Of a stretch of 34,679 nucleotides of DNA, positions 7,490-34,339 are shown in pieces (the first letter of the stretch is position 1; each line of letters begins with the position of its first letter). Below the pieces are notes generated by a model that did not search any database, was not told the DNA's origin, and was given only the letters and a program-made list of their open reading frames with translations. The translations under genes were made by a program, and so were the position numbers. This stretch comes from a virus: IMG/VR virus record IMGVR_UViG_3300042905_005203, positions 1-34,679 of that record; one strand, given 5' to 3'.

Positions 7490-9424
7490 GTGGTGTCGCT
7501 TACTCCAACCTCACAACTCGGCTACAACTCGCTGGGCAAAGGCGTTCATTCTGACGAGCGCTTTCCGGACCCTTTCTGCGACATAGCCAGCCTGTCTATG
7601 CCGGAAAGTATTCAGACAGCTTTACGCTGGACTGAGTATGTCATGAACGCCAACGGCCCGTACCGGCAAGCCGTTGACCGCGTGGTGTCGTACTTTATTA
7701 CTGATGTCGAAATTTACGATATCGGTGAGAATACCACAGGGCGCGAAGAGAAAGAAAAGTTTCAGGTCTTTCTTGAAGACACTCTCAGCATCAAAAACGT
7801 CCTGCACACGATCGGGCTGGACTACATGTCCTATGGTAATTCGTTTACCAGCCTGCTTGTTCCGTTTCGCCGGTATCTGTCGTGCAAGTCCTGCGGCCTC
7901 GAAATGCCGCTAGACAAAGTTTACAACTCTGAACAGTGCGCGTTTAAGTGGCAAGACTTTCAGTTTCACGCTACCTGCCCGAAGTGCAAGCGAACTGGAG
8001 AGTGGCGCCATATCGACCGGCGATCCGGCGACACCGACAACATGCACGTGAAACGCTGGAGTCCGCACGAGATCGACATTCTTTGGGACCCGTACACCGA
8101 CGACTGCTCCTACGTCTGGAAGATTCCGCAGGACTACCGAGCGCTGATCAAGCAGGGGCACTTGCATCATCTTGAGCGCGCCAGTTGGGAAGTGATTCAG
8201 GCGATCAAAAACGAACAGAACTTGATGTTTGACAAGGGCGTGATTTACCATCTGAAAGAAGACGCCCTCGCCGGTATGCGTAATCGCGGTTGGGGTATCT
8301 CTCGCGTGCTGACGAATTTCCGGCAGGCGTGGTACTATCAGATTCTGCATCGCTATAACGAGGCGATTGCGCTGGATTACGTGATTCCGTTCCGCGTAAT
8401 TACACCGGCGCCGCGCGGTGGCGATGCTCAGTCTTCCGACCCCGTGCACACGATTAATTTGTCTAATTTTACGGCGCGGGTGCAGTCTATGCTTCGCGCC
8501 CGTAGGACAGATCCTGCTCGTTGGAATGTGCTGCCTTTTCCTGTGAACTATCAGGCGCTTGGCGGCGACGCCACGCAGCTAGCGCCCAAAGACTTGCTGG
8601 ATCAGGGGCTTGAAACGCTGCTCAAGTGCATTGGCATGCCGGTTGAGCTTTTCAATGGCACGCTGTCGTTCCAAGCTGCGCCGGCAGCGCTGCGCTTGTT
8701 TGAAGCGAACTGGAGCCATTTACCGCACAACATGAATCGGTTTTTGACTGACCTATCCGGCCACGTCGCCAATGTGATGTCGTGGGAGCCGGTAGGTGCC
8801 AAGCTCGTTCGCGTTACTCACGCGGACGACCTCAACCGTCAGATGGCCAAGCTGCAACTAATGCAGGGCCAGATGATCAGCAAGACTACGGGTCTTAAGA
8901 GCGTCGGCATCGACTATGAGGACGAGACTAAGCGCATGCTCGAAGAAGAGCGCATTTACGCCGACGAGCAAGAGCGCATGCAAAAGGAGATGGAGCAGTC
9001 GCAGCAGATGAAGGATTTGTCGCAGTCTGCAGAAATGATGGGCGGCGTAGGTCAAGCTGGTGCCGGTGCGACAGGCATGCCGCCGCAGCAAGGCGGCGCG
9101 CCTGTACCAGCCGCTGGCGGCGCGCCTATGGGTCCTGGGCAGCCGTCTGCTGTTGATCACTTCTTGATGCAGCGACAGAACTCCGGCAGTATTCCACGTA
9201 CGCCCGAAGATCTGCAGCAGCAGGCGCAACTTATTGCTAACCAGTTGCTCTCTATGCCTGAGACACAGAAAGACTCGGAGCTTATTAAGCTCAAGCGCGG
9301 CGACGCGACGATGCACGCGCTGGTGACAAGTATTATTGACGACATTCGGCAACAAGCTCGTTCTCAGGGCGGCGCTATGGTGATGGCGCAGCAGTACGGA
9401 CAACCCGCGCCAGCCGGTATGTGA
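7490..9424 (+). CDS. Portal protein
   Basis: The portal is the dodecameric ring at the capsid vertex through which DNA is packaged and ejected and to which the tail joins. The 644-aa length and layout fit: an N-terminal helical region with YRQAVDRVVSYF, a core with WGISRVLTNFRQAWYYQILH and DYVIPFRVITPAP, the conserved LGGDATQLAPKDLLDQGLE / GTLSFQAAPAALRLFEANW region, and a helical Gln/Met/Gly-rich C-terminus typical of phage portals. An unusual Cys cluster (CKSC 132-135, Cys150, CPKC 163-166) looks like a zinc ribbon inserted in the N-terminal half. Start: GTG 7490 and GTG 7493 follow GAGG; 7493 has the better spacing. No terminase or protease gene is seen beside it. Confidence 0.8.
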   Translation: MVSLTPTSQLGYNSLGKGVHSDERFPDPFCDIASLSMPESIQTALRWTEYVMNANGPYRQAVDRVVSYFITDVEIYDIGENTTGREEKEKFQVFLEDTLSIKNVLHTIGLDYMSYGNSFTSLLVPFRRYLSCKSCGLEMPLDKVYNSEQCAFKWQDFQFHATCPKCKRTGEWRHIDRRSGDTDNMHVKRWSPHEIDILWDPYTDDCSYVWKIPQDYRALIKQGHLHHLERASWEVIQAIKNEQNLMFDKGVIYHLKEDALAGMRNRGWGISRVLTNFRQAWYYQILHRYNEAIALDYVIPFRVITPAPRGGDAQSSDPVHTINLSNFTARVQSMLRARRTDPARWNVLPFPVNYQALGGDATQLAPKDLLDQGLETLLKCIGMPVELFNGTLSFQAAPAALRLFEANWSHLPHNMNRFLTDLSGHVANVMSWEPVGAKLVRVTHADDLNRQMAKLQLMQGQMISKTTGLKSVGIDYEDETKRMLEEERIYADEQERMQKEMEQSQQMKDLSQSAEMMGGVGQAGAGATGMPPQQGGAPVPAAGGAPMGPGQPSAVDHFLMQRQNSGSIPRTPEDLQQQAQLIANQLLSMPETQKDSELIKLKRGDATMHALVTSIIDDIRQQARSQGGAMVMAQQYGQPAPAGM

Positions 9425-11561: not shown

Positions 11562-12245
11562 GTGTTTATCTGCTTTGAGGGTATTGATGGGGCCGGCAAA
11601 ACCACGCAGGCTCGTATGCTCTTTCAGGCGCTTAAAGATGCCGAGGTAAAAACAGAACTGGTAGCCGACCCCGGAACTACAAAAATAGGCACCGCTATTC
11701 GCCAGATTCTGCTCGACAACGACGGGCCGATTACGCCGTTTGCGCAAATGCTTCTTTTCTCTGCCGCCCGTGCTGAACTCGCGTCTTACATGGAACCGAA
11801 GTTGCATAATCACGTCATTATTTGCGACCGCTGGCTGCTATCGACGCTTGTGTATCAGGGCACGCTGAACGACATTGAGCCGACCCTGATTGTCGATATT
11901 TTTGACTGGACGACCGGCATAAACCCGGATATCTGCTTTCTGTTAGATATTTCGCCGACAGACGCCAAAAAGCGCATGGGCAAGCCTCGGGACCGGTATG
12001 AGCGCCGGTGCATGGCCGACCGCAAGAAAATGCGCGACGCTTATCTTACATACGCAGGCGACGACTTCGCTCAAGTTACGCACGTTATCGACGCAACTTC
12101 GGCGCCGAACACAACACACCGGCAGATAATGAAAATTGTGTCTGCCGCGTTGAAGGGGTCTAAAACCTGTATGCCAAAGAGAAGGGATTCTAAAAATGGC
12201 AGTAATGGTCGCGCCGGAGATCGCCGCTCAAAACCTAGAGCGTGA
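11562..12245 (+). CDS. tmk: Thymidylate kinase (dTMP kinase)
   Basis: Phosphorylates dTMP to dTDP with ATP. The frame opens at a TTG (11550), but GTG 11562 follows GGAGG by five bases and is the likely start. The P-loop is FEGIDGAGKTTQ (Gly7 to Thr15). The substrate-binding DR motif is ICDRWLLSTLVYQG with Asp89-Arg90, where bacterial enzymes have DRYxxSSxAYQG. KKRMGKPRDRYE supplies the basic lid-type segment. Length from GTG is 227 aa, close to the family norm (~205-215) with a basic C-terminal extension that overlaps the next gene by 50 bases. Together with the thymidine kinase near 29 kb it gives a salvage route to dTTP. Confidence 0.87.
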   Translation: MFICFEGIDGAGKTTQARMLFQALKDAEVKTELVADPGTTKIGTAIRQILLDNDGPITPFAQMLLFSAARAELASYMEPKLHNHVIICDRWLLSTLVYQGTLNDIEPTLIVDIFDWTTGINPDICFLLDISPTDAKKRMGKPRDRYERRCMADRKKMRDAYLTYAGDDFAQVTHVIDATSAPNTTHRQIMKIVSAALKGSKTCMPKRRDSKNGSNGRAGDRRSKPRA

Positions 12246-12702
12246 ATCCGAGATTTTTGTATCTAAATCCGAGGCGCGCCGAATTGAGCGGCAGCTACTC
12301 GTAAGTCCCCCGCACCGCACTGTAAATCAGTCGTTGCGCAAGATTTGTTTTATGCTGCATGCTTTAGCTCAGAAGCATGTGTCAAAAACAGCCGGGGCGT
12401 TCGAGGATTATTCAACTTTTGTGCACTGCACAAAATTGTTGCAAGATATGGGCCTAAAGCCCGAAATTTCCTCGCAAATGGACGCGGCGGTTTCCAGCGT
12501 CGGCACAGATGTCATTAAAAGCTCTTTTGAATATCGCCAGCTACGTAATAAAATGATTGCTGGTTTAGCCGTCATTGCTGATTTAACAGAACGTCCAGCG
12601 GCGGCCGGATCGCAGGAATACCAGAGAGGTGTGCGAGAGGGTTATCGCCGCGCAAGCGATATCGCTGCCACGTTTCTTGAAGACATCGACGGCGAGGTTT
12701 AA
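12196..12702 (+). CDS. Unknown helical phage protein, 168 aa
   Basis: Not recognised. ATG 12196 has AAGGGA upstream and overlaps the end of the thymidylate kinase gene by 50 bases. The protein looks almost all-helical and soluble, with segments such as TVNQSLRKICFMLHALAQKH and KSSFEYRQLRNKMIAGLAVI. It contains no metal-binding or nucleotide-binding motif. Its placement just after nucleotide-metabolism genes is the only contextual clue. It is followed two bases later by the next small gene. Confidence 0.5.
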   Translation: MAVMVAPEIAAQNLERESEIFVSKSEARRIERQLLVSPPHRTVNQSLRKICFMLHALAQKHVSKTAGAFEDYSTFVHCTKLLQDMGLKPEISSQMDAAVSSVGTDVIKSSFEYRQLRNKMIAGLAVIADLTERPAAAGSQEYQRGVREGYRRASDIAATFLEDIDGEV

Positions 12703-12704
12703 AT

Positions 12705-12968
12705 ATGGAACCGAAAAGCGTAGTCGATCAGCTTGGGGACTTAAATCCAGAAGCGTATTTTTTCGACAATATGGCGTCGGCGCTTGTGGGGTTGGGCTAT
12801 ATCGGTCATCGGGACCCGGTAGCCGTGTATAGCCGCGCCAAAATCTACGAAAAACTGGCTGCCGATGGTTTGTCAGCAGAAGACGTAGAAGAGTATTTCT
12901 CCAGCAAATTTGTCGGTCTTTGGGCCGGCGAGCACACACCTGTTATCCTTGATGACTTAACGGAGTAA
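12705..12968 (+). CDS. Small unknown acidic protein, 87 aa
   Basis: Not recognised. ATG 12705 lies two bases after the preceding stop, without an obvious SD. The product is acidic and helical, with LNPEAYFFDNMASALVGLGY and KLAADGLSAEDVEEYFSSKF, the latter reading like a helix-turn pattern of an all-alpha small domain. No membrane segment or cysteine is present. It is part of a run of three small proteins between thymidylate kinase and the first tail-fibre gene. Confidence 0.5.
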   Translation: MEPKSVVDQLGDLNPEAYFFDNMASALVGLGYIGHRDPVAVYSRAKIYEKLAADGLSAEDVEEYFSSKFVGLWAGEHTPVILDDLTE

Positions 12969-12976
12969 TAAATTCA

Positions 12977-13291
12977 GTGGCTACGCTTGTAGAAAACACG
13001 CCCAATCACATTCAGTTTGTAAACGCTGTTTCTGGTTTAAAAGATGCGCCTACATTGTCCGTACAATCAGGTGACTGGGAGGCTGGTGATTACGTTGAAA
13101 GCGGCGTGGTTTTCGACACGCTCGGCGAGCAGGCGCCAATATTGACCGCGGCTGACGCGCGTAAATTGGCCAAATGGCTAACTCGCGCGGCTGATGCGCT
13201 AGAGGGCGTAAAAAATTCAGACAAGAAAAACAAAACGCGCCATCGTTACGAAGAAGACGATGACGACGATATAAACGATTACAAACGGTGA
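12977..13291 (+). CDS. Small unknown protein with acidic/basic tail, 104 aa
   Basis: Not recognised. It starts at GTG 12977 (GTG GCT ACG), eight bases after the preceding stop, with a weak SD. The first ~75 residues look folded: a beta-rich half (LSVQSGDWEAGDYVESGVVF) and a helix (DARKLAKWLTRAADALEG). The final ~25 residues are strongly charged, a Lys run followed by an Asp/Glu run (HRYEEDDDDDINDYKR), and probably disordered. It lies immediately before the first collagen-like fibre gene; a link to tail assembly is possible but not shown. Confidence 0.5.
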   Translation: MATLVENTPNHIQFVNAVSGLKDAPTLSVQSGDWEAGDYVESGVVFDTLGEQAPILTAADARKLAKWLTRAADALEGVKNSDKKNKTRHRYEEDDDDDINDYKR

Positions 13292-13298
13292 CTAAGAT

Positions 13299-15992
13299 AT
13301 GGCCAACAAGAAAATCTCTGAGCTTCCGCTTAAGTCAACCCCCGGCGCAAATGACATCCTTCCGCTTGTCGATACGGCTACGCAGCCGTTTCAAACTAAA
13401 CGCACCACGCTCGGCGCGATAGCAGCCGCTATAGGCGGCGGGGGTGGCGGTTCAGGCGCCACAGGCCCGCAAGGCGCTACAGGCCCTCAAGGCGCCACTG
13501 GACCACAGGGCGCTACAGGCCCAAGCGGCGCAGGCGCTACAGGCCCTCAAGGTGTAGCAGGCGCTACTGGCCCGCAAGGCCCGGCCGGCGTTGAGGGGCC
13601 GCAACAAGTATTTACTTACGCGACTGCGGAGTCTTTTCCGCTTACCGGCAACACAGAAACTTTCTATATCGACGCGGCGGAAAGTCGTATCTACGTTTGG
13701 CGCGACACCGCGTATGTAGAAGTTATTGGACAGGCCGGACCACCGGGCGCCGATGGTGTTGGCTTAATAGTCGCCGGCGACGGCGACGGTAGTCTCGTGG
13801 GTCTTGGCGCCGAAAATACCAACAGCGCCACATCAGACTACAGCGTTGTTGTAGGCGGCAAGGATAACACCGCTGACGGCGAATATTCCAGTATTCTCGG
13901 CGGCCGCAACAATGATATCAACGAGCAAACCAACGCGCACATTGTTGGTTCGGATATCGTCGCATATGGGCAAGACGCCACTTTTGTAAATAACTTGGTG
14001 GTCGCGGGTATCCCTGACCCCGAGAACGAAGGCGAGTTTATTAATGGCGGGATCGCGCTCCGCAACTTTTCGGGTATTGGCGTCGGCGCGTTTGACAACA
14101 TGACTAGCGGCCAGAACGGCATTTCGCTCATCTGCACCGCCGGTTACGAGTTGAACTGGCAGGGCGGTAGGCTGCGCAAAGTAAACCTTGGCGACACAGA
14201 CGGCCTGCCGCAGCCGATCTATGTTGATTCGCCGCTGTGGTTTCCGGGCGAAGGCGAAAGCAACATGGAGATCAGTTCCGCGGGGCTGCTGTTCCCCGAC
14301 GGCACGACGCAAAATACCGCAGCGATTACTTCCGTAGACGGCGGATATGTTGCAACTTACTACTTTTCTACCGGTAATTTAAGCACGCTTGCCAACTGGA
14401 CAGACGATTACGATCAAGCCGCTACCACACTCCCGACCGCAGACGACTTTGTTGTTATTTCTGGCGCGGCATCTGCTGGTTCCGTAACCGCGCTTACTGG
14501 TGTAATTTTGTCTGGCACATTTGCCGGCACTATTACGGCTGATAATGTTTACGTTAAAAATGATGTCGTTGTCACTGGAACCATAAATTGTTCTGAACTT
14601 GCTATTTTTTCCGACACGGCGACCAATCAAGGAAACACAGTTAATGGCGATGCAAAGTTTATGTATCTGACCGCGGCCGATAGCGAACAGTACGGCAACG
14701 GCTATGTGGTAGATGAAACGGGTTACGCCAACGGTAACGTAACGGGCGACACGCTAGACTCAGCCGGCGAAGAAATTTTAACTTGGGTATTTGACGGTAC
14801 AAATTTGCTGGGCACTGTCAAAGGCAATGCAATTTTTATTAACACCGCCTACAAGACAGGCGACGTAATTGGCAACGCGACATTCTTGGGCAGTTCGCGT
14901 GATGACGGCGGCACGATATCCGGCACAGCCACGTACAGTAGTGATGTCACTGGTTGGATTGATGATGCCTATTGGTACATTAATGGTCGCCGCACGGGAT
15001 TAAACGCGTCCGGCACTGGTTATTGGAATGAGTCTTACTGGGTCGCCAGCGTTGAAACCGATTTGCCAGAATCAGGCACCGGCTTTTGGAGCGGCGCTTA
15101 CTACATCGCCGGCGCACTTACTGACCTTGATTCAGACGGCAACGGCTGCTGGGAAGGCGACCTTTATGACAACGGTGTAGAAGTCGACCTCACGGCTTAT
15201 ACCGGCTACAACCCCTGTAATTTTATTTACTACATCGCCGGAGTAGTCACTGACCTTGATCCAGACGGCAACGGCTGTTGGAACAACGTGGCTTACACTG
15301 CTGGCGTTGCAGATTTTGATCTGACAACCTACACCGGCTACAACTCCTGTGACGACATTTACTACATCGCCGGAGTAGGCACTTACCTTGATTCAGGCGG
15401 CAACGGCTGTTGGAACGCCGTGGCTTACACTGCTGGCGTTGCAGATTTTGATCTGACAACCTACACCGGCTACAACTCCTGTGACAACATTTACTACATC
15501 GCAGGCGTAGGCACTGGCCTTGATCCAGACGGCAACGGCTGTATAGATAACAAATATTACGTCAACGGCGCAGTTTCGTTTGACCCCGCCACTGACACCG
15601 GCTACAACTCCTGTGATTCTACTTACTACGTCGCCGGCGCGGCCACAACTCTTGATCAAGACGGCAACGGCTGCTGGAGCAACATAGAGTACACTGCCGG
15701 CGTTGCAGATTTTGACCCCGCGACTTACACCGGCTACAACTCCTGTGACAACATTTACTACATCGCAGGCGTAGGCACTGACCTTGATTCAGACGGCAAT
15801 GGCTGCTGGAACAATGTGGCTTACACTGCCGGCGTTGCAGATTTTGATCTGACAACCTACACCGGCTACAACTCCTGTGATTCTACTTACTACGTCGCCG
15901 GCTCGGCCACAACTCTTGATCAAGACGGCAACGGCTGCTGGAACGACGAACTATATGTTAGCGGCGCGACAGACGGTGATCCATGCCCGTAA
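13299..15992 (+). CDS. Modular tail fibre protein with collagen-like rod and 44-aa Cys repeats, 897 aa
   Basis: A probable receptor-binding fibre. Residues 1-45 (KKISELPLKSTPGANDILPL) form a head shared with the fibre at 19984. A short Gly-X-Y collagen-like rod (ATGPQG units) spans roughly 13455-13600. Next is a region with YadA-head-like repeats (VVVGGKDNTADGEYSSILGG, then QDATFVNNLVV), then a domain beginning YYFSTGNLSTLANW that recurs at the end of the protease at 18901. The C-terminal third is about seven copies of a 44-aa repeat with an LDxDGNGCW core and GYNSC. Each full unit holds two Cys and an Asp-rich loop that could bind calcium. The start has a weak SD. Fibre identity is confident; the receptor is unknown. 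Confidence 0.75.
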   Translation: MANKKISELPLKSTPGANDILPLVDTATQPFQTKRTTLGAIAAAIGGGGGGSGATGPQGATGPQGATGPQGATGPSGAGATGPQGVAGATGPQGPAGVEGPQQVFTYATAESFPLTGNTETFYIDAAESRIYVWRDTAYVEVIGQAGPPGADGVGLIVAGDGDGSLVGLGAENTNSATSDYSVVVGGKDNTADGEYSSILGGRNNDINEQTNAHIVGSDIVAYGQDATFVNNLVVAGIPDPENEGEFINGGIALRNFSGIGVGAFDNMTSGQNGISLICTAGYELNWQGGRLRKVNLGDTDGLPQPIYVDSPLWFPGEGESNMEISSAGLLFPDGTTQNTAAITSVDGGYVATYYFSTGNLSTLANWTDDYDQAATTLPTADDFVVISGAASAGSVTALTGVILSGTFAGTITADNVYVKNDVVVTGTINCSELAIFSDTATNQGNTVNGDAKFMYLTAADSEQYGNGYVVDETGYANGNVTGDTLDSAGEEILTWVFDGTNLLGTVKGNAIFINTAYKTGDVIGNATFLGSSRDDGGTISGTATYSSDVTGWIDDAYWYINGRRTGLNASGTGYWNESYWVASVETDLPESGTGFWSGAYYIAGALTDLDSDGNGCWEGDLYDNGVEVDLTAYTGYNPCNFIYYIAGVVTDLDPDGNGCWNNVAYTAGVADFDLTTYTGYNSCDDIYYIAGVGTYLDSGGNGCWNAVAYTAGVADFDLTTYTGYNSCDNIYYIAGVGTGLDPDGNGCIDNKYYVNGAVSFDPATDTGYNSCDSTYYVAGAATTLDQDGNGCWSNIEYTAGVADFDPATYTGYNSCDNIYYIAGVGTDLDSDGNGCWNNVAYTAGVADFDLTTYTGYNSCDSTYYVAGSATTLDQDGNGCWNDELYVSGATDGDPCP
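15100..15989 (+). repeat. Tandem 132-nt coding repeat (44 aa), about seven copies
   Basis: The 3' third of the first fibre gene is built of units of 132 bases; for example, GTGGCTTACACTG occurs at 15288 and again at 15420. Each unit encodes YYIAGVGTxLDxDGNGCW followed by YTAGVADFDLTTYTGYNSC. Some copies are nearly identical in DNA while others differ, which points to recent duplication or gene conversion between units. The repeats are in frame throughout and are protein structure, not a CRISPR array. Confidence 0.85.
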
Positions 15993-16031
15993 AATTACAG
16001 CGTACTTGTGTATATACGAAGAGAACAACAT

Positions 16032-17666
16032 ATGAGCACTGAAATTAAAATACGCCGCGGCTCGGCCATATATTTTTCTACTACAAACCCGGTGCTTTCT
16101 GACGGGGAACCAGCGCTAGAAATAGACACCGGAAAAATAAAGTATGGCGACGGCTCAACAGCGTGGAACTCGCTGGCTTATTTTTCTTTGCCTGCCGCGA
16201 ACGTCTCTGGTTTAAGCGAGGCCGCGTCGGCCGCTGCGCCTGTACAGTCTGTTAACTCACAAACAGATGACGTTTTTCTAACTATAGACAACATTCCAAA
16301 ATCAGATTTTGATAATTGGAGTATTAATAGTTTAAATTTTGACAGCGTCTACGGCAGTCGCCCCTTTCCGGTTTTTGCGGCAGGCAAATTTTATTGTTTT
16401 GCTCACGGTACAATTTTTGCCAGCGCCGACGGTAGAAATTGGACATCTGCCGCAACGCCGGTGATTGGGCAAGGTACTAATTTTTATGTTGCTTACGGCA
16501 ACGGCATATTTGTTTTAATATCGCTTGCTCAAGGTGGTTCTTTTTCAAATTTACACACAAGCCCCGACGGCAGTACATGGACTCAACGTCCTGTTCCTAG
16601 TGGTTTAGTGTTTTCAACTTGGCCTTTTAGTTACGCCGCTCAAGGTCGGGGCAGTCCTGTGAATTTTGTAAATGATCGTTTTGTATTGCTCGGTTTTGAC
16701 GGAAATAATGCCGCTAAAAGCGCCGTGAGCACAGACGGATTAAATTGGACTGTTAGTTCTGGTTTTTTGCCGACAATCGCTGGCGGCTGGTGGAGCGGAT
16801 TAGCATATGGCGCTGGCTTGTATGTTGCTGTTGCCGCATACAGCGACACTAAATACGCTACAAGTCCTGATGGTTTGAACTGGACAGAACGCAATTCGCT
16901 ACCGACAATATTAACAGGGCCAGCCGGGCTACAAAATATCGCATTTGGCAATGATTGTTTTGTTGTTACTAATCCTCAAGGACAAGCACGTATTGGTAGA
17001 AGTGTAGATGGAATAAATTGGACATTAATAGTGCCTCAATCGGAATTTGACGGCGTAATAAGCGTTCGCTATGTAGATAATTATTTTGTATTTTTTGGTA
17101 ACTACGGAAAAGTCTTTACAAGCACAGACGCAACAACATTTGCACAAAAAACCAGCATCCCCGGCGCAAGTACGAGTTTTATTAGATCCGCACACGGTAA
17201 CGGAACGCTTTTAATCAGCAATGGCCAAGGGTCGGGGGTTGCCGTAAGTGACGATAAAATTATTACCGTCGCGAGAGACATTGTTTTCAACTCTTTTGGC
17301 ACCGGCGCGAATCAGTTTTGTCAGGGCAACGATTCGCGACTATCTGATGCTAGAAATCCGCTGGCGACCGCCTCTTCGACCGCGCACGGCAACTCAGGAT
17401 CAAGCCGCACGCTGTCGGCTACGTCGGCGGTACAGACATGTTCGCTCAGCGCTAATTGCACCTTCGCGATGCCGACAGCATCAGCGTCAGCCTTTGTGCT
17501 TATTTTGACTCAAACTGGTTCTTTCACTGCCACGTTTACAGGCGTGCGCTGGCCAGGCAACGCAGCGCCGACAATTACAACTGGGGCAAATAAAATCGAC
17601 ATTATTCGTTTTGTGTCAAACGGCACAAATTGGTACGGCCAGATCACGCAAAATTACAACGTTTAA
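16032..17666 (+). CDS. Tail fibre with Mtd_N-type N-terminus and Asp-box-like repeats, 544 aa
   Basis: ATG 16032 is preferred to 16008 because the conserved N-terminal domain begins there. Residues ~1-50 (EIKIRRGSAIYF, then NPVLSDGEPALEIDTGKI and YGDGSTAWNSLAYF) match the Mtd_N-type domain at the head of many phage fibres. Residues ~100-400 carry five or six repeats around S-x-DG-x-NWT (SADGRNWTSA, SPDGSTWTQR, STDGLNWTVS, SPDGLNWTER, SVDGINWTLI). These are the Asp-box-like turns of sialidase or exo-beta-propeller folds, so a glycan-binding propeller is likely. The C-terminus (GANKIDIIRFVSNGTNWYGQ) is a common fibre tip. No catalytic sialidase triad is identified. Confidence 0.7.
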   Translation: MSTEIKIRRGSAIYFSTTNPVLSDGEPALEIDTGKIKYGDGSTAWNSLAYFSLPAANVSGLSEAASAAAPVQSVNSQTDDVFLTIDNIPKSDFDNWSINSLNFDSVYGSRPFPVFAAGKFYCFAHGTIFASADGRNWTSAATPVIGQGTNFYVAYGNGIFVLISLAQGGSFSNLHTSPDGSTWTQRPVPSGLVFSTWPFSYAAQGRGSPVNFVNDRFVLLGFDGNNAAKSAVSTDGLNWTVSSGFLPTIAGGWWSGLAYGAGLYVAVAAYSDTKYATSPDGLNWTERNSLPTILTGPAGLQNIAFGNDCFVVTNPQGQARIGRSVDGINWTLIVPQSEFDGVISVRYVDNYFVFFGNYGKVFTSTDATTFAQKTSIPGASTSFIRSAHGNGTLLISNGQGSGVAVSDDKIITVARDIVFNSFGTGANQFCQGNDSRLSDARNPLATASSTAHGNSGSSRTLSATSAVQTCSLSANCTFAMPTASASAFVLILTQTGSFTATFTGVRWPGNAAPTITTGANKIDIIRFVSNGTNWYGQITQNYNV

Positions 17667-17916: not shown

Positions 17917-18876
17917 ATGAGTTTTCCCGCTAATCCTACACTCGGCCAGCAGCACGTTTTAAACGGTCGAACCTATACGTGGTCCGGGTTTGTTTGGAAT
18001 GTTTATCTGCCGCCGCTTTTAGCCGGCCCGACTGGCGCCACAGGACCACAAGGTTTAACCGGCGCTACAGGGCCGCAAGGTAATACTGGCCAAACCGGCG
18101 TTGTTGGCCCGTCAGGCGCTACAGGCCCGCAAGGCACGCCGGGTCCGGCCGGCTCTCAGGGGCCCGGCATTGTTATCGAGGGTATCGTTGCCGCATGGCC
18201 CCCAACGGCGAGCCCAACAGCCGGTGACGTTTGGATATTTAATGGTTCAATTCCATCTGGTTCTCCAGTCGGCGCTACGGCTGGTGACGGCGTTGTGTGG
18301 ACGGGTGACGCGTGGGTATATCTGGGGCCGATTCGCGGACCACAGGGAGCTACTGGCGCGCAGGGATCAACGGGCCCACAAGGGCTTGTCGGACAAACTG
18401 GCGCGCATGGCCCAAGCGGGGTCACGGGACCCTCCGGCGCGACTGGGCCGCAGGGTGTAACAGGTGCGGCAGGTCCGCAGGGGTCTACTGGAGTTGTTGG
18501 CGCGACCGGTCCCGCCGGCCCGCAGGGCGCAACGGGTCTGTCAGGTTCGGGTAGCAGTGTAGTTGTGACGCTTTCTTCCGCGGCCACATTAACGACTGAC
18601 GCCTCGGCCGGCGACATTTTTAATTTGACGCTTACCGGCAACGTTACGCTTGCGAATCCGATAAATCCTGTTGACGGTAAAACAGTTCGTTGGCGTTTAA
18701 AGCAAGACGCAACTGGCAATCGAATTATTACGCTGGGTAATAAATTCAACGTCGCATCGTCGGCGACTGTTCCGTTACCGTTCAGCACGACTGCAAATAA
18801 AATGGACGTACTTGCCGCGACCTACGACGCCAGCCGCGACGTTTGGGACGTCGTTGCGCTCTTGCTTGGTTATTGA
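17917..18876 (+). CDS. Collagen-like tail fibre protein, 319 aa
   Basis: The N-terminus ([20 protein letters not shown], then WSGFVWNVY) is a small phage fibre-head domain. Two Gly-X-Y collagen-like blocks (roughly 18016-18170 and 18330-18548) flank a compact region with [16 protein letters not shown]. The C-terminal ~100 residues ([20 protein letters not shown], then [19 protein letters not shown]) match a tip domain found on many phage fibres. Collagen-like rods of this kind trimerise and act as flexible stalks. It begins five bases after the preceding small gene. Confident as a fibre or fibre-tip protein; the receptor is unknown. Confidence 0.75.
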
Positions 18877-18900
18877 TGCGCGGCTAAATCGGAGGCCCGC

Positions 18901-19908
18901 ATGTCGATTAATAAAACAATTATTCCAGCAAGAATGCACGCGGCTGTTATTAGTCGCTTAAACGGCAAAACTGCGGCTACCGCAAAACCGGTGTACAGTT
19001 CGCAAGATCCCTACGGTCCAAACGGCGGCACTTTTATCCGCAACTCAAATTGCTGGATTAACGGCATCACCAACATTTCTTGTTTTTCGCCGGCGCAACT
19101 AAGCGGCGCAAACTGGCGCGTTACAGCCGGGACGTTAATCACGCCAAAGCACGTATTGTTTGCGCGGCACTTTATCCCTGCGATTATTAGTGGCGGAACG
19201 CCGCTGATATTTGTTGACGAAAACAATAACGTTGTTCGTAGAAAATTAATTCAAATAACATCTGCCGGACATACCGATATCTCGGTTGGTTTGCTTGAGT
19301 CCGACGTATCGCCAAACATAAAAATTGCCAAAGTTTTGCCTAAGAATTACAGCGATTTTATTGATTTTTATTCTGTACCGGTCGTGTACGGTGTAGGTCT
19401 CGATCAACAAGAAAAAGCATTAGTGTTTAGTTTATCGCAAATTTCAACCTCGTTTAACGTAAATGTTGGTGAAAATATTCCTGCCCCTTACCGAGATTTT
19501 TCAGAAGGTCTTATTGCTGGAGATTCTGGAAATCCCGCTTTTCTTATCGTCAATAACGAACTTGTAGTCATGACAACTTGGTGGACGGGCGGCGCATATG
19601 GCGGTGGCGGGCCATTTGTGTCCAATACGCAAAACTACGACGCAATTAACCAGTTAATAAACGACTTGTCGCCCGCTGAGGGTTATTCGTTAACTGATGT
19701 CGATTTGACGGCTGCCGCGACAGAGCGCCAGCTGTACTTTAACGAAACTGTGGATTCAAACTGGACGACTCTTGGTAATTGGTTTCAGGACAGCAATTTC
19801 ACTACGCCGGCCGGCACACTTCCGTCCGTATTTGACACGCCAATCTTGCCGTGGGCTAAAAGCGTGCATCGCGTTATTGGCGGCAGCGGTGTTTTAAGCG
19901 GCTTTTAG
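18901..19908 (+). CDS. Trypsin-like serine protease in the tail-fibre locus, 335 aa
   Basis: A chymotrypsin-fold protease by motif. The catalytic triad is placed as in S1-type enzymes: His90 in GTLITPKHVLFARHF (like the TAAHC region), Asp126 in AGHTDISVGLLESD (like DIALL), and Ser209 in LIAGDSGNPAFLIVNNE (GDSGxP). NYDAINQLINDL matches the closing C-terminal helix. No signal peptide is seen. After ~residue 270 follows a domain (YFNETVDSNWTTLGNWFQDS) shared with the first fibre, which stops abruptly after ~55 residues and looks truncated. GGAGG precedes ATG 18901. It might be a virion-borne enzyme that processes fibres or degrades host surface protein; substrate and self-processing are unknown. 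Confidence 0.75.
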   Translation: MSINKTIIPARMHAAVISRLNGKTAATAKPVYSSQDPYGPNGGTFIRNSNCWINGITNISCFSPAQLSGANWRVTAGTLITPKHVLFARHFIPAIISGGTPLIFVDENNNVVRRKLIQITSAGHTDISVGLLESDVSPNIKIAKVLPKNYSDFIDFYSVPVVYGVGLDQQEKALVFSLSQISTSFNVNVGENIPAPYRDFSEGLIAGDSGNPAFLIVNNELVVMTTWWTGGAYGGGGPFVSNTQNYDAINQLINDLSPAEGYSLTDVDLTAAATERQLYFNETVDSNWTTLGNWFQDSNFTTPAGTLPSVFDTPILPWAKSVHRVIGGSGVLSGF

Positions 19909-19983: not shown

Positions 19984-22506
<2,523 letters not shown>

Positions 22507-32527: not shown

Positions 32528-32535
32528 CTCGGCAT

Positions 32536-32607
32536 GGGGCTGTGGCGCAACGGTAGCGCATCGGACTTTTAATCCGTTGGTTCTGGGTTCGAATCCCAGC
32601 AGCCCCA
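32536..32607 (+). tRNA. tRNA-Lys (UUU)
   Basis: A 72-base cloverleaf. The acceptor stem GGGGCTG pairs with CAGCCCC, the D-stem is GCGC/GCGC, the anticodon loop is CTTTTAA with anticodon TTT, the T-arm is CTGGG-TTCGAAT-CCCAG, and the discriminator is A. The outer pair of the anticodon stem is a T-T mismatch. CCA is not encoded. It would read AAA and AAG lysine codons. Confidence 0.85.
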
Positions 32608-32666
32608 TTTCTAGCAAACGGATTGCTGGAAAGCGTCGATTGTTTTCTTACGCAAGGAGGTGTTCG

Positions 32667-32927
32667 ATGCAGTTGCTTATTGTGCTATTTACGGCGTTTC
32701 TCATGCCGCTGCTGCAGCCGGTCGCCCAGCTTGGTGCGGCCAAAGTGCACGAAACGCTCGGCGTTCCGTTGCAGCAGTCGCAATCGGTGGCTACGCAGCC
32801 TATGATGCAGGGGCCTCCGCCGGTTGTTCGGCCCCAGCCACCCCAATACCACTTCGACGGCGCGAGGTGGTACAAGTACGAGAACGGACAGATTTATGTC
32901 TGGACAGGAAACTCTGCTCCCTTTTGA
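32667..32927 (+). CDS. Small exported or membrane-anchored Pro-rich protein, 86 aa
   Basis: ATG 32667 has a near-perfect AAGGAGG SD, which sets the start. The N-terminus (QLLIVLFTAFLMPLLQPVAQ) is a hydrophobic signal or anchor. The middle is Gln/Pro-rich (PMMQGPPPVVRPQPPQYHF), and the C-terminus (GARWYKYENGQIYVWTGN) is aromatic and likely beta. It overlaps the next gene by 32 bases. With the two upstream genes it makes a short run of envelope-targeted products. Function unknown. Confidence 0.55.
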   Translation: MQLLIVLFTAFLMPLLQPVAQLGAAKVHETLGVPLQQSQSVATQPMMQGPPPVVRPQPPQYHFDGARWYKYENGQIYVWTGNSAPF

Positions 32928-33216
32928 GTTCGTGTGCGAATTTCCCGAACGCGGCGGATACGATCAAATTCCGCCGCACATGCAGGAGGCCATTCGGCGC
33001 TACGTGGTACAAGGCCTAGCGCCCGGTCATTTCTTGCAGGGGGTAATCTCGAACGACTTGCGCATGGCAGTCAATCATGCGGATAGTACCAACCTGCCGT
33101 TGCTAAAGCTCTACGCGCAGTGGTTCTACAACGTGGCGCCTTCGGGCTGCCACGGCAACTTGGCTAACATGCTCAAGTGGATTTCAGAGCGGCAGCGTGA
33201 CGCCGAGTCGACGTGA
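32896..33216 (+). CDS. Conserved-type phage hypothetical protein, 106 aa
   Basis: ATG 32896 lies inside the 3' end of the preceding gene; earlier in-frame starts would overlap it more. The pattern IPPHMQEAIRRYVVQGLAPG, then HFLQGVISNDLRMAVNHAD, YAQWFYNVAPSGCHGN and MLKWI matches a small protein of unknown function that I recall from many phages, with a G-x-FL-x-x-V-x-SNDL core and a WxYN-x-x-P-x-x-C-x-G motif. The family has no known role; it is soluble and mostly helical. Confidence 0.6.
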   Translation: MSGQETLLPFEFVCEFPERGGYDQIPPHMQEAIRRYVVQGLAPGHFLQGVISNDLRMAVNHADSTNLPLLKLYAQWFYNVAPSGCHGNLANMLKWISERQRDAEST

Positions 33217-33223
33217 CCACAGG

Positions 33224-33259
33224 GCCCTGCCGGCGAGATTTAAAATCTCCCGGCAGGGC
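33224..33259 (+). other. Long perfect hairpin before tRNA-Leu
   Basis: GCCCTGCCGG (33224-33233) pairs with CCGGCAGGGC (33250-33259). After one bulged C, GAGATT pairs with AATCTC over a TAA loop, 16 pairs in total. It lies between a protein gene and the tRNA starting at 33267, with no T tract after it. It may be a processing signal, a transcription-pause or insulating element, or a terminator lacking the U tail. Confidence 0.7.
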
Positions 33260-33266
33260 ACCCTAT

Positions 33267-33340
33267 GGGAGCGTAGACCAACCGGCAGAGTCAAAGGACT
33301 TAAAATCCTTGTGTTGCGGGTTCGAATCCCGCCGCTCCTA
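33267..33340 (+). tRNA. tRNA with anticodon UAA (Leu) but short variable arm
   Basis: A 74-base cloverleaf: acceptor GGGAGCG/CGCTCCT (first pair G-U), a three-pair D-stem (GAC/GTC), anticodon stem AAGGA/TCCTT with loop CTTAAAA (anticodon TAA, reading UUA), variable region GTGTT and T-arm GCGGG-TTCGAAT-CCCGC, discriminator A. Bacterial tRNA-Leu normally has a long variable arm, which this lacks. No CCA is encoded. The anticodon assignment is clear; charging identity is less so. Confidence 0.75.
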
Positions 33341-33354
33341 CTAGAAAGGTTTTC

Positions 33355-33645
33355 ATGTCTTTGATAACAAAATACGCATTCGGCGGTGCATGCAAAGCTA
33401 CCGAGCTAGGCGACGACTTGGTCATTTCCGGCCCGTGTTATGACTGCAAGCGACCGCAGACCGTCACTGTGCGAAAAGACGCGCTGGAAAAATTTCGTGC
33501 TGGCGCTCACGCGCAAAACTGTTTTTCCAAGTTGTCAGCCGAAGAGCGTGAGTTTTTAATCTCTGGCATTTGCGGTGAATGCTGGGACCTGATGTTCTCC
33601 GAGGATGAAGACGATACCAATGACGGAGAAAACAGCGATCTATAA
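33355..33645 (+). CDS. Small zinc-binding-type phage protein, 96 aa
   Basis: ATG 33355 follows AAAGG. The segment ISGPCYDCKRPQTVTVRKD, then LSAEEREFLISGICGECWD, forms two CxxC pairs (Cys28-Cys31 and Cys73-Cys76, counting from the start) and matches a small phage protein of unknown function that I recall as widespread. The C-terminus is acidic and disordered. The start sits 15 bases after the tRNA. Probably a zinc-stabilised adaptor or nucleic-acid-linked protein; function not established. Confidence 0.6.
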   Translation: MSLITKYAFGGACKATELGDDLVISGPCYDCKRPQTVTVRKDALEKFRAGAHAQNCFSKLSAEEREFLISGICGECWDLMFSEDEDDTNDGENSDL

Positions 33646-33982
33646 ACCGGTCTGCTGCTACCAATGCGGCGAGACCATGCGCTCGTATACGTTTAAAGAC
33701 GTGTATAAAATGCGCATCGACGGTAAAATTCATCGGGTGCCGGTACTCGCCGTGCCGTGCACGCGTTGCGACGCCTGCGACATCGCGGTGACAAGTAGCG
33801 ATTCCGATGAGGCCATCATGTGGTCTTACAATCAGTACATCAAAGAGCACCGGCTTGATACGCCGTGGTTGCTCTTTCGGCGGTGGGTTCGACGGCAGTG
33901 GCTCCGGCAGTACGACCGCTGGAACTACTGGGTCTTCAAAACTTTCTACAAACAGGAGCGCACGCATGGCGATGCCGCTTGA
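33620..33982 (+). CDS. Small protein with YgiT/MqsA-type zinc finger, 120 aa
   Basis: Candidate starts are 33605 and 33620, both overlapping the previous gene; 33620 overlaps less and the protein core (AIYKPVCCYQCGETMRS) begins just after it. The Cys pairs in VCCYQCGETM and PCTRCDACDIAV, separated by RIDGKIHRVPVLAVP, match the YgiT-type zinc finger seen in the N-terminal half of MqsA antitoxins. No DNA-binding HTH follows; instead there is a basic, Trp-rich helical tail (LLFRRWVRRQWLRQYDRWNY). No MqsR-like toxin is adjacent. It may be an orphan zinc finger used as a regulator or adaptor. Confidence 0.55.
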   Translation: MTEKTAIYKPVCCYQCGETMRSYTFKDVYKMRIDGKIHRVPVLAVPCTRCDACDIAVTSSDSDEAIMWSYNQYIKEHRLDTPWLLFRRWVRRQWLRQYDRWNYWVFKTFYKQERTHGDAA

Positions 33983-34253
33983 AGTCGAGTTGTTGATCAC
34001 GGCGTGGGACAACGCCAAGAAGAACGCCTTCGGAGGCGAGGGGTTGAACATCGACCCCGAAACCGGTGAGATCGTCGACGGCACTGAACTGCCGCCCGAC
34101 CTTGCCGACCTCGTTTCCGACATTAACGACAAGATGATGGACTTGGTGTCTGTCTATCGTATCATGGAGCGCCCAGAGCGCTACCTAGACGACGCGGGTG
34201 ATTACGAGGACGAAACCGATATGGACATCCGCGAAACAGCCGATAATCTGTGA
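33966..34253 (+). CDS. Small unknown acidic protein, 95 aa
   Basis: Not recognised. ATG 33966 has AGGAG eight bases upstream and overlaps the preceding gene by 17 bases; the upstream part of the frame is not needed. The product is acidic and helical (PLEVELLITAWDNAKKNAFG, LADLVSDINDKMMDLVSVYR) with an Asp/Glu-rich tail. It ends just before the tRNA-Val gene. Confidence 0.5.
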   Translation: MAMPLEVELLITAWDNAKKNAFGGEGLNIDPETGEIVDGTELPPDLADLVSDINDKMMDLVSVYRIMERPERYLDDAGDYEDETDMDIRETADNL

Positions 34254-34261
34254 TTACGCGT

Positions 34262-34335
34262 AGCCGCATAGCACAGTTGGTTAGTGCGCCTCGTTTACAC
34301 CGAGGAGGTCGGGGGTTCGAATCCCTCTGCGGCTA
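34262..34335 (+). tRNA. tRNA-Val (UAC)
   Basis: A 74-base cloverleaf: acceptor AGCCGCA/TGCGGCT, D-stem GCAC/GTGC, anticodon stem CCTCG/CGAGG with loop TTTACAC (anticodon TAC), variable AGGTC, T-arm GGGGG-TTCGAAT-CCCTC (one G-U), discriminator A. CCA is not encoded. It would read GUA and related valine codons. Confidence 0.87.
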
Positions 34336-34339
34336 TTCC

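What the first reader, a model, noticed from the sequence alone, without database searches (positions are those of the whole stretch)
18901..19908. Trypsin-like serine protease embedded among collagen-like tail fibres
Seen in sequence: His90, Asp126 and Ser209 in S1-type contexts (KHVLFARHF, HTDISVGLL, GDSGNPAF), with no signal peptide, between two collagen-like fibre genes. Known: S1-fold proteases are rare in tailed-phage tail loci, where depolymerases and tail lysozymes are usual. Inference: a virion protease that matures fibres, or that cuts host surface protein during adsorption.
Basis: partly seen in the sequence, partly recalled or inferred. Interest (0 to 1): 0.7.

Follow-up and report, generated by a model that had tools for sequence, protein, structure and literature searches.

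The report
Trypsin-like protease in phage fibre locus
A phage carries, among its tail-fibre genes, a trypsin-fold protease with its catalytic residues intact; it belongs to an undescribed family that recurs in the fibre loci of other large phages, is fused here to a fibre module, and has exported-looking relatives in planctomycete bacteria, so it may be a virion enzyme that cuts surface protein, although no activity or virion location has been shown.

Summary
ORF 18901-19908 has no Pfam, PHROG or NCBIfam match, but it has relatives in eight other phage lineages, a podovirus and a few Planctomycetota genomes; all but one deleted phage form share its His90/Asp126/GDS209G core. A family profile matches only S1 proteases in the PDB (5 of 5 hits), and an AlphaFold core model (pLDDT 54, pTM 0.62) matches chymotrypsin-fold chains at VIA Z about 10. 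The phage relatives lie in fibre loci. In six of eight related lineages a solenoid-type fibre gene lies directly upstream, and that fibre's N-terminal cap is fused to the C-terminus of the window's protease (E 2e-14). One related phage lacks the whole catalytic core in frame yet keeps both ends and its fibre genes, which argues against an obligatory fibre-maturation role. The closest bacterial homologues found are chromosomal, apparently exported planctomycete proteins. Best reading: a fibre-borne protease that cuts protein at the host surface. Catalysis, virion location, target and the window's host are untested. New variant of a known kind (virion-associated depolymerase).

The parts
18901..19908 (+). 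S1-like serine protease gene, 335 aa, with a fused fibre cap at its C-terminus
   Evidence: ORF; relatives; fold
18891..18895 (+). Shine-Dalgarno GGAGG before the ATG at 18901
   Evidence: sequence
18985..19719 (+). protease core, aa 29-273, modelled as the chymotrypsin fold
   Evidence: AlphaFold model pLDDT 54, pTM 0.62; Foldseek; VIA-align
19168..19170 (+). codon of catalytic His90
   Evidence: invariant; aligned with the S1 histidine
19276..19278 (+). codon of catalytic Asp126
   Evidence: invariant; aligned with the S1 aspartate
19525..19527 (+). codon of catalytic Ser209 in GDSGNP
   Evidence: invariant; aligned with the S1 serine
19732..19848 (+). fused N-cap of solenoid-type fibre, aa 278-316 (LYFNETVDSNWTTLGNWFQDSNFTTPAGTLPSVFD...)
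   Evidence: hmmsearch E 2.1e-14, best hit in the window; blastp 41-56% identity to the caps of relatives' fibres
17917..18876 (+). upstream collagen-like fibre; its C-terminal domain (about 18544-18873) recurs in the fibre blocks of L005, L009, L010, L014 and L029
   Evidence: PF01391 E 6e-19; C-terminal domain profile
19984..22506 (+). downstream long collagen-like fibre
   Evidence: tail-fibre PHROGs, best E 1.8e-140

Best explanation
The gene encodes an S1-like (clan PA) serine protease that is made in the cytoplasm without an evident export signal, joins the tail-fibre apparatus (in this phage through a covalently fused fibre N-cap), and reaches the cell exterior as part of the virion. 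There it cleaves protein on or around the host cell during adsorption, as a proteolytic counterpart of a tailspike depolymerase. Shown here by computation: the S1-like fold and conserved triad, the fibre-locus setting in several phage lineages, the fusion to a fibre module, and exported-looking chromosomal homologues in Planctomycetota. Inferred: catalytic activity, virion location, an extracellular protein as target, and a planctomycete host.
For: Profile A3 finds only S1 proteases among PDB sequences (5 of 5; 1a5i E 0.019, aligned over most of the domain with H, D and S matched). Core model: listed Foldseek hits all S1 (best E 3e-6), VIA Z 9.5-10.2. Triad and GDSGxP invariant across phage and bacterial relatives at 24-56% identity. 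Fibre locus in the relatives; solenoid fibre directly upstream in L003, L005, L008, L009, L010 and L029. Fibre N-cap fused to the window protease. Two tandem protease domains in one ORF of L005. Distant homologue in the tail region of a podovirus. Bacterial homologues with signal-peptide-like N-termini, which fits an enzyme that works outside the cell.
Against: No virion proteomics and no activity data. The model is of modest quality (pLDDT 54; TM-scores about 0.4). In several relatives the gene next downstream is not a fibre but small membrane-protein-like or other genes. The fibre association is by gene order in most relatives, by fusion only in the window. The catalytic core is missing in one lineage, so it is not essential there. 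The substrate pocket residue before GDSG varies between relatives, so no specificity can be read.
Confidence: 0.5

Rival explanations
1. Fibre maturation protease: it cleaves the neighbouring fibre proteins (cap or chaperone segments) during tail assembly.
For: Tight linkage and fusion to fibre modules; cytoplasmic synthesis would put enzyme and fibre together.
Against: L029/L030 keep the adjacent fibre genes but lack the catalytic core; the bacterial relatives look exported and have no fibres nearby; MW202510 pairs the protease with different neighbours.
Confidence: 0.17
2. Non-virion role: the protease acts inside the infected cell or its envelope late in infection (host takeover, lysis, release of progeny), and sits in the fibre block only because both are late genes.
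For: Small membrane-protein-like ORFs, possibly lysis genes, follow it in L005, L012 and L014; a trypsin-like protease with no fibre neighbourhood is known in phiM9.
Against: Fusion to a fibre cap in the window and the constant fibre upstream; no export signal seen in the phage proteins.
Confidence: 0.2
3. Non-catalytic use: the S1-like domain is a structural or receptor-binding head of the fibre and the triad is no longer used.
For: The catalytic core is absent in one lineage; enzyme folds are reused as binding heads in some fibres (general knowledge).
Against: H90, D126, S209 and the GDSGxP loop are among the very few invariant columns of the family, which a pure binding domain would not need.
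Confidence: 0.08

Closest known systems
Peptidase family S1 (chymotrypsin/trypsin), clan PA; Pfam PF00089 and PF13365
   Same: Order and context of His, Asp and Ser, GDSGxP loop, best structural matches all S1.
   Different: Below detection by Pfam; GDSGNP instead of GDSGGP; only two cysteines, so none of the usual S1 disulfides beyond a possible 51-61 pair; no IVGG-type activation N-terminus seen; a family-specific second histidine (H84) is invariant.
Exported planctomycete homologues (L032 in G136, L033 in G104; L034 in G006 more distant)
   Same: Same core: 41%, 38% and 24% identity to the window core, same triad and GDSG loop.
   Different: Chromosomal, signal-peptide-like N-termini, extra N-terminal domain in L032/L033, no phage or fibre genes recognised around L032 and L033.
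UOF78081.1 of Caudoviricetes sp. ct3Et533 (MW202510, podovirus)
   Same: hhalign probability 97.6, E 4.5e-12, triad aligned; lies in the tail region between a tailspike-like protein and an FN3 protein.
   Different: About 25% identity, an N-terminal extension of about 130 aa, different neighbours; annotated only as hypothetical.
Virion-associated depolymerases (review PMC5380687)
   Same: Enzyme domain in the fibre or tailspike locus of a tailed phage.
   Different: Those described are mostly polysaccharide-degrading; the polypeptide-cutting case given there is a poly-gamma-glutamate peptidase of Bacillus phage PhiNIT1, not an S1 protease.
Trypsin-like protease of Sinorhizobium phage phiM9 (AKE44730; PMC10783043)
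   Same: Trypsin-like serine protease gene in a large tailed phage.
   Different: Lies next to the major head gene, about 24 kb from the fibre genes; no detectable similarity to this family.

Membership tests
S1-like peptidases, clan PA (works like) | Double beta-barrel chymotrypsin fold | tested here: met
   Core model matches S1 chains only in the listed rows: Foldseek E 3e-6, VIA Z 9.5-10.2 over about 155 residues; model quality modest
S1-like peptidases, clan PA (works like) | His, Asp, Ser in that order in S1 contexts, with a GDSGxP loop | tested here: met
   Invariant across the full-length relatives and aligned with the S1 residues of 1a5i
S1-like peptidases, clan PA (works like) | Triad spatially assembled | not testable with these tools
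   Model coordinates are not released
S1-like peptidases, clan PA (works like) | Peptidase activity | not testable with these tools
   Needs an assay
Pfam PF00089 Trypsin (membership) | Match above the curated cut-off | tested here: not met
   No match for the window protein or relatives; it is therefore not filed as a PF00089 member
Virion-associated depolymerase | Gene lies in the tail-fibre or tailspike locus | tested here: met
   Collagen-like fibres on both sides in the window; fibre blocks in the relatives
Virion-associated depolymerase | Enzyme domain physically part of a fibre or spike protein | tested here: inconclusive
   Fibre N-cap fused to the window protease, but the solenoid repeats are missing and in the relatives protease and fibre are separate genes
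Virion-associated depolymerase | Present in the virion and degrades a host surface polymer | not testable with these tools
   Needs virion proteomics and enzyme assays
phiM9-type phage trypsin-like protease | Sequence homology to AKE44730 | tested here: inconclusive
   hhalign probability 0.2, E 0.31; shallow alignments, so distant ancestry is not excluded

The most novel reading that the evidence does not exclude
A tail-fibre-borne, protein-cleaving depolymerase: large phages of Planctomycetota took an exported host-type S1 protease, dropped its export signal, and mounted it on their fibres to cut a protein-rich cell surface during adsorption.
Probability: 0.27. Interest if true: 0.75.

Novelty: new variant of a known kind. 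Interest (0 to 1): 0.52.

Why it matters
Virion depolymerases described so far mostly attack polysaccharides (PMC5380687). A recurrent S1 protease in fibre loci would add protein cleavage to the ways tailed phages reach their receptor, would point to hosts with protein-rich surfaces, and gives a concrete gene family, its bacterial relatives and a natural core-deletion variant with which to test the idea.

Tried and rejected
Pfam, NCBIfam, PHROGs and PADLOC scans of the protease gave no usable family. The first AlphaFold job on the full protein with 7 rows failed (pLDDT 36) and was discarded. A genome-contig scan with the phage profile found no bacterial relative, probably because its peptide patterns were strict; the later six-frame search of Planctomycetota did find some. 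A viral scan with the podovirus homologue found none, and tblastn of the planctomycete homologue found none among phages or plasmids. The window's last residues (RVIGGSGVLSGF) look like the fibres' C-terminal cap, but the profile did not support this. The family tree cannot say how often the gene moved between phages and planctomycetes (support 80/42, two very long branches). A head-maturation protease was set aside because the gene lies in the fibre block and its relatives do too. The weak matches L035 and L036 were not used. Paper searches found no description of this arrangement, but subscription journals are mostly not held.

Full report
What is there. The window is a 34.7 kb virus record. 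ORF 18901-19908 encodes 335 aa with a ribosome-binding site and no hydrophobic N-terminus by eye. His90, Asp126 and Ser209 are as described. An identical 11.0 kb stretch exists in a second contig, L002 (0 mismatches), so the gene is unlikely to be an assembly artefact.

Fold. The window protein alone gives no Pfam, PHROG or NCBIfam family, though 5dj7, 5dk1, 4m7g and 1pyt, all S1 proteases, appear among its weak PDB sequence hits (E 0.2-0.6). A profile of six relatives gives only S1 proteases among PDB sequences (five of five hits; the top one, 1a5i, E 0.019, is aligned along most of the domain with all three catalytic residues matched). With planctomycete rows added the two best hits are again S1 proteases, but the list is short and weak. 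A first full-length model failed. A model of the core with nine rows reached pLDDT 54 and pTM 0.62; the 50 listed Foldseek hits are S1 chains (best E 3e-6, probability 1.00), and VIA-align gives Z 9.5-10.2 over about 155 residues for the listed chains, again S1-fold. TM-scores are only about 0.4, because parts of the model are poor. Among viral models the best match is an uncharacterised protein of an uncultured Caudovirales phage (E 1e-9).

Family. Viral contigs encode relatives in eight distinct lineages besides the window's own: L003, L005, L008, L009, L010, L012, L014 and a deleted form, L029/L030. The full-length ones are 50-54% identical to the window. A podovirus, MW202510, has a distant homologue (P0001; hhalign probability 97.6, E 4.5e-12), the only one found among 50,697 phage records. 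L005 carries two protease domains in one ORF. Across phage, podovirus and planctomycete sequences only 15 columns are invariant, and they include H84, H90, D126 and the GDSGxP loop.

Setting. In the window the gene lies between collagen-like fibres. In L003, L005, L008, L009, L010 and L029 a fibre with solenoid-like repeats and a characteristic N-cap lies directly upstream. That N-cap is fused to the C-terminus of the window's protease at aa 278-316 (E 2e-14, by far the best hit in the window); the solenoid repeats themselves are absent there. L012 and L014 lack the N-cap fibre but have other fibre-like genes nearby. The fibre C-terminal domain of window ORF 17917-18876 recurs in the fibre blocks of L005, L009, L010, L014 and L029. 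MW202510's homologue follows tail genes, between proteins annotated as rhamnogalacturonan lyase and FN3.

A natural deletion. L029 and L030 (identical over 8.2 kb, so one phage in two assemblies) keep roughly the first 78 and the last 46 residues of the protein in frame but lack everything between, triad included. The fibre genes around it are open. So the fibres of that phage apparently do without the protease core. An assembly error has not been excluded by reads.

Bacterial relatives and host. L012 carries a DUF1501 gene (E 1e-74) whose one hit in the genome scan is a Pirellulaceae MAG (34% identity). A six-frame search of 294 genomes of that phylum (Planctomycetota) found strong homologues of the protease in two (E about 1e-40; 41% and 38% identity to the window core) and weak matches in three more; a second search of 392 genomes kept three. 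The two best lie among ordinary chromosomal genes, with signal-peptide-like starts (by eye) and an extra N-terminal domain. Other phyla were not searched with this sensitivity, so this does not show that the family is planctomycete-specific, and nothing ties the window itself to a planctomycete host.

Mechanism. The best-supported reading is a protease carried on the fibres, reaching the outside with the virion and not by export, that cuts protein at the host surface. The S1-like fold, the conserved triad, the fibre locus and the fusion are shown by computation; activity, virion location and target are inference. Fibre maturation and a non-virion role are the main rivals; the first is weakened by the deletion, the second by the fusion.

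Known precedents. Trypsin-like proteases are known in large phages (phiM9 and relatives, PMC10783043), but in phiM9 the gene is beside the major head gene, about 24 kb from the fibre genes, and not detectably of this family. A review of virion-associated enzymes names a poly-gamma-glutamate peptidase as a polypeptide-cutting depolymerase (PMC5380687). Paper searches found no description of the arrangement seen here, with the limits of the library in mind.

Verdict. The finding is real, more interesting than a lone odd gene because it is a recurrent family tied to fibres, but its function is inferred. The protein works like an S1 protease by every test that could be run; it is not a PF00089 member by cut-off. 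As a system it is a new variant of the virion-associated depolymerase theme.

Noticed in passing
L010:3717-4448: A second, separate trypsin-family gene (PF00089 E 1.3e-16) with a signal-peptide-like N-terminus lies about 3.5 kb upstream of the fibre-locus protease; it has no match among phage records.
   Followed up: partly
L029:6001-6375 and L030:6001-6375: In-frame loss of the entire protease core with both termini kept, in two assemblies that are identical over 8.2 kb.
   Followed up: partly
L012:10377-11762: A DUF1501 gene (E 1e-74), a type common in planctomycetes, sits in the phage contig; best genome hit Pirellulaceae. A similar-looking second gene follows at 11880-13115 but was not tested.
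   Followed up: partly
L005:11815-12741, L012:8291-9214, L014:10667-11593: A conserved ORF that resembles a papain-like cysteine protease by eye (GDCxSH..., HCMxF/HAMCW, NSWG); no Pfam match for the L012 copy.
   Followed up: no
window 13299-15992: Fibre-like ORF with a collagen-like start, a bactofilin-like segment, a weak copy of the same N-cap and a long run of Cys-containing repeats (YNSCDNIYYIAGVGTDLDSDGNGCW).
   Followed up: no
window 16008-17666: Fibre-like ORF with an Mtd_N domain (E 9e-9) and repeated DGxxWT motifs; whether a diversity-generating retroelement lies nearby was not tested.
   Followed up: no
window 7490-9424: Portal-protein homologue of Salmonella phage Arash and of Vibrio phages D69, D148 and D181 (25-29% identity), all 180-188 kb, so the window is probably part of a large phage.
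   Followed up: no
window 32535-34336: Three tRNA genes (Lys, Leu, Val) near the right end.
   Followed up: no
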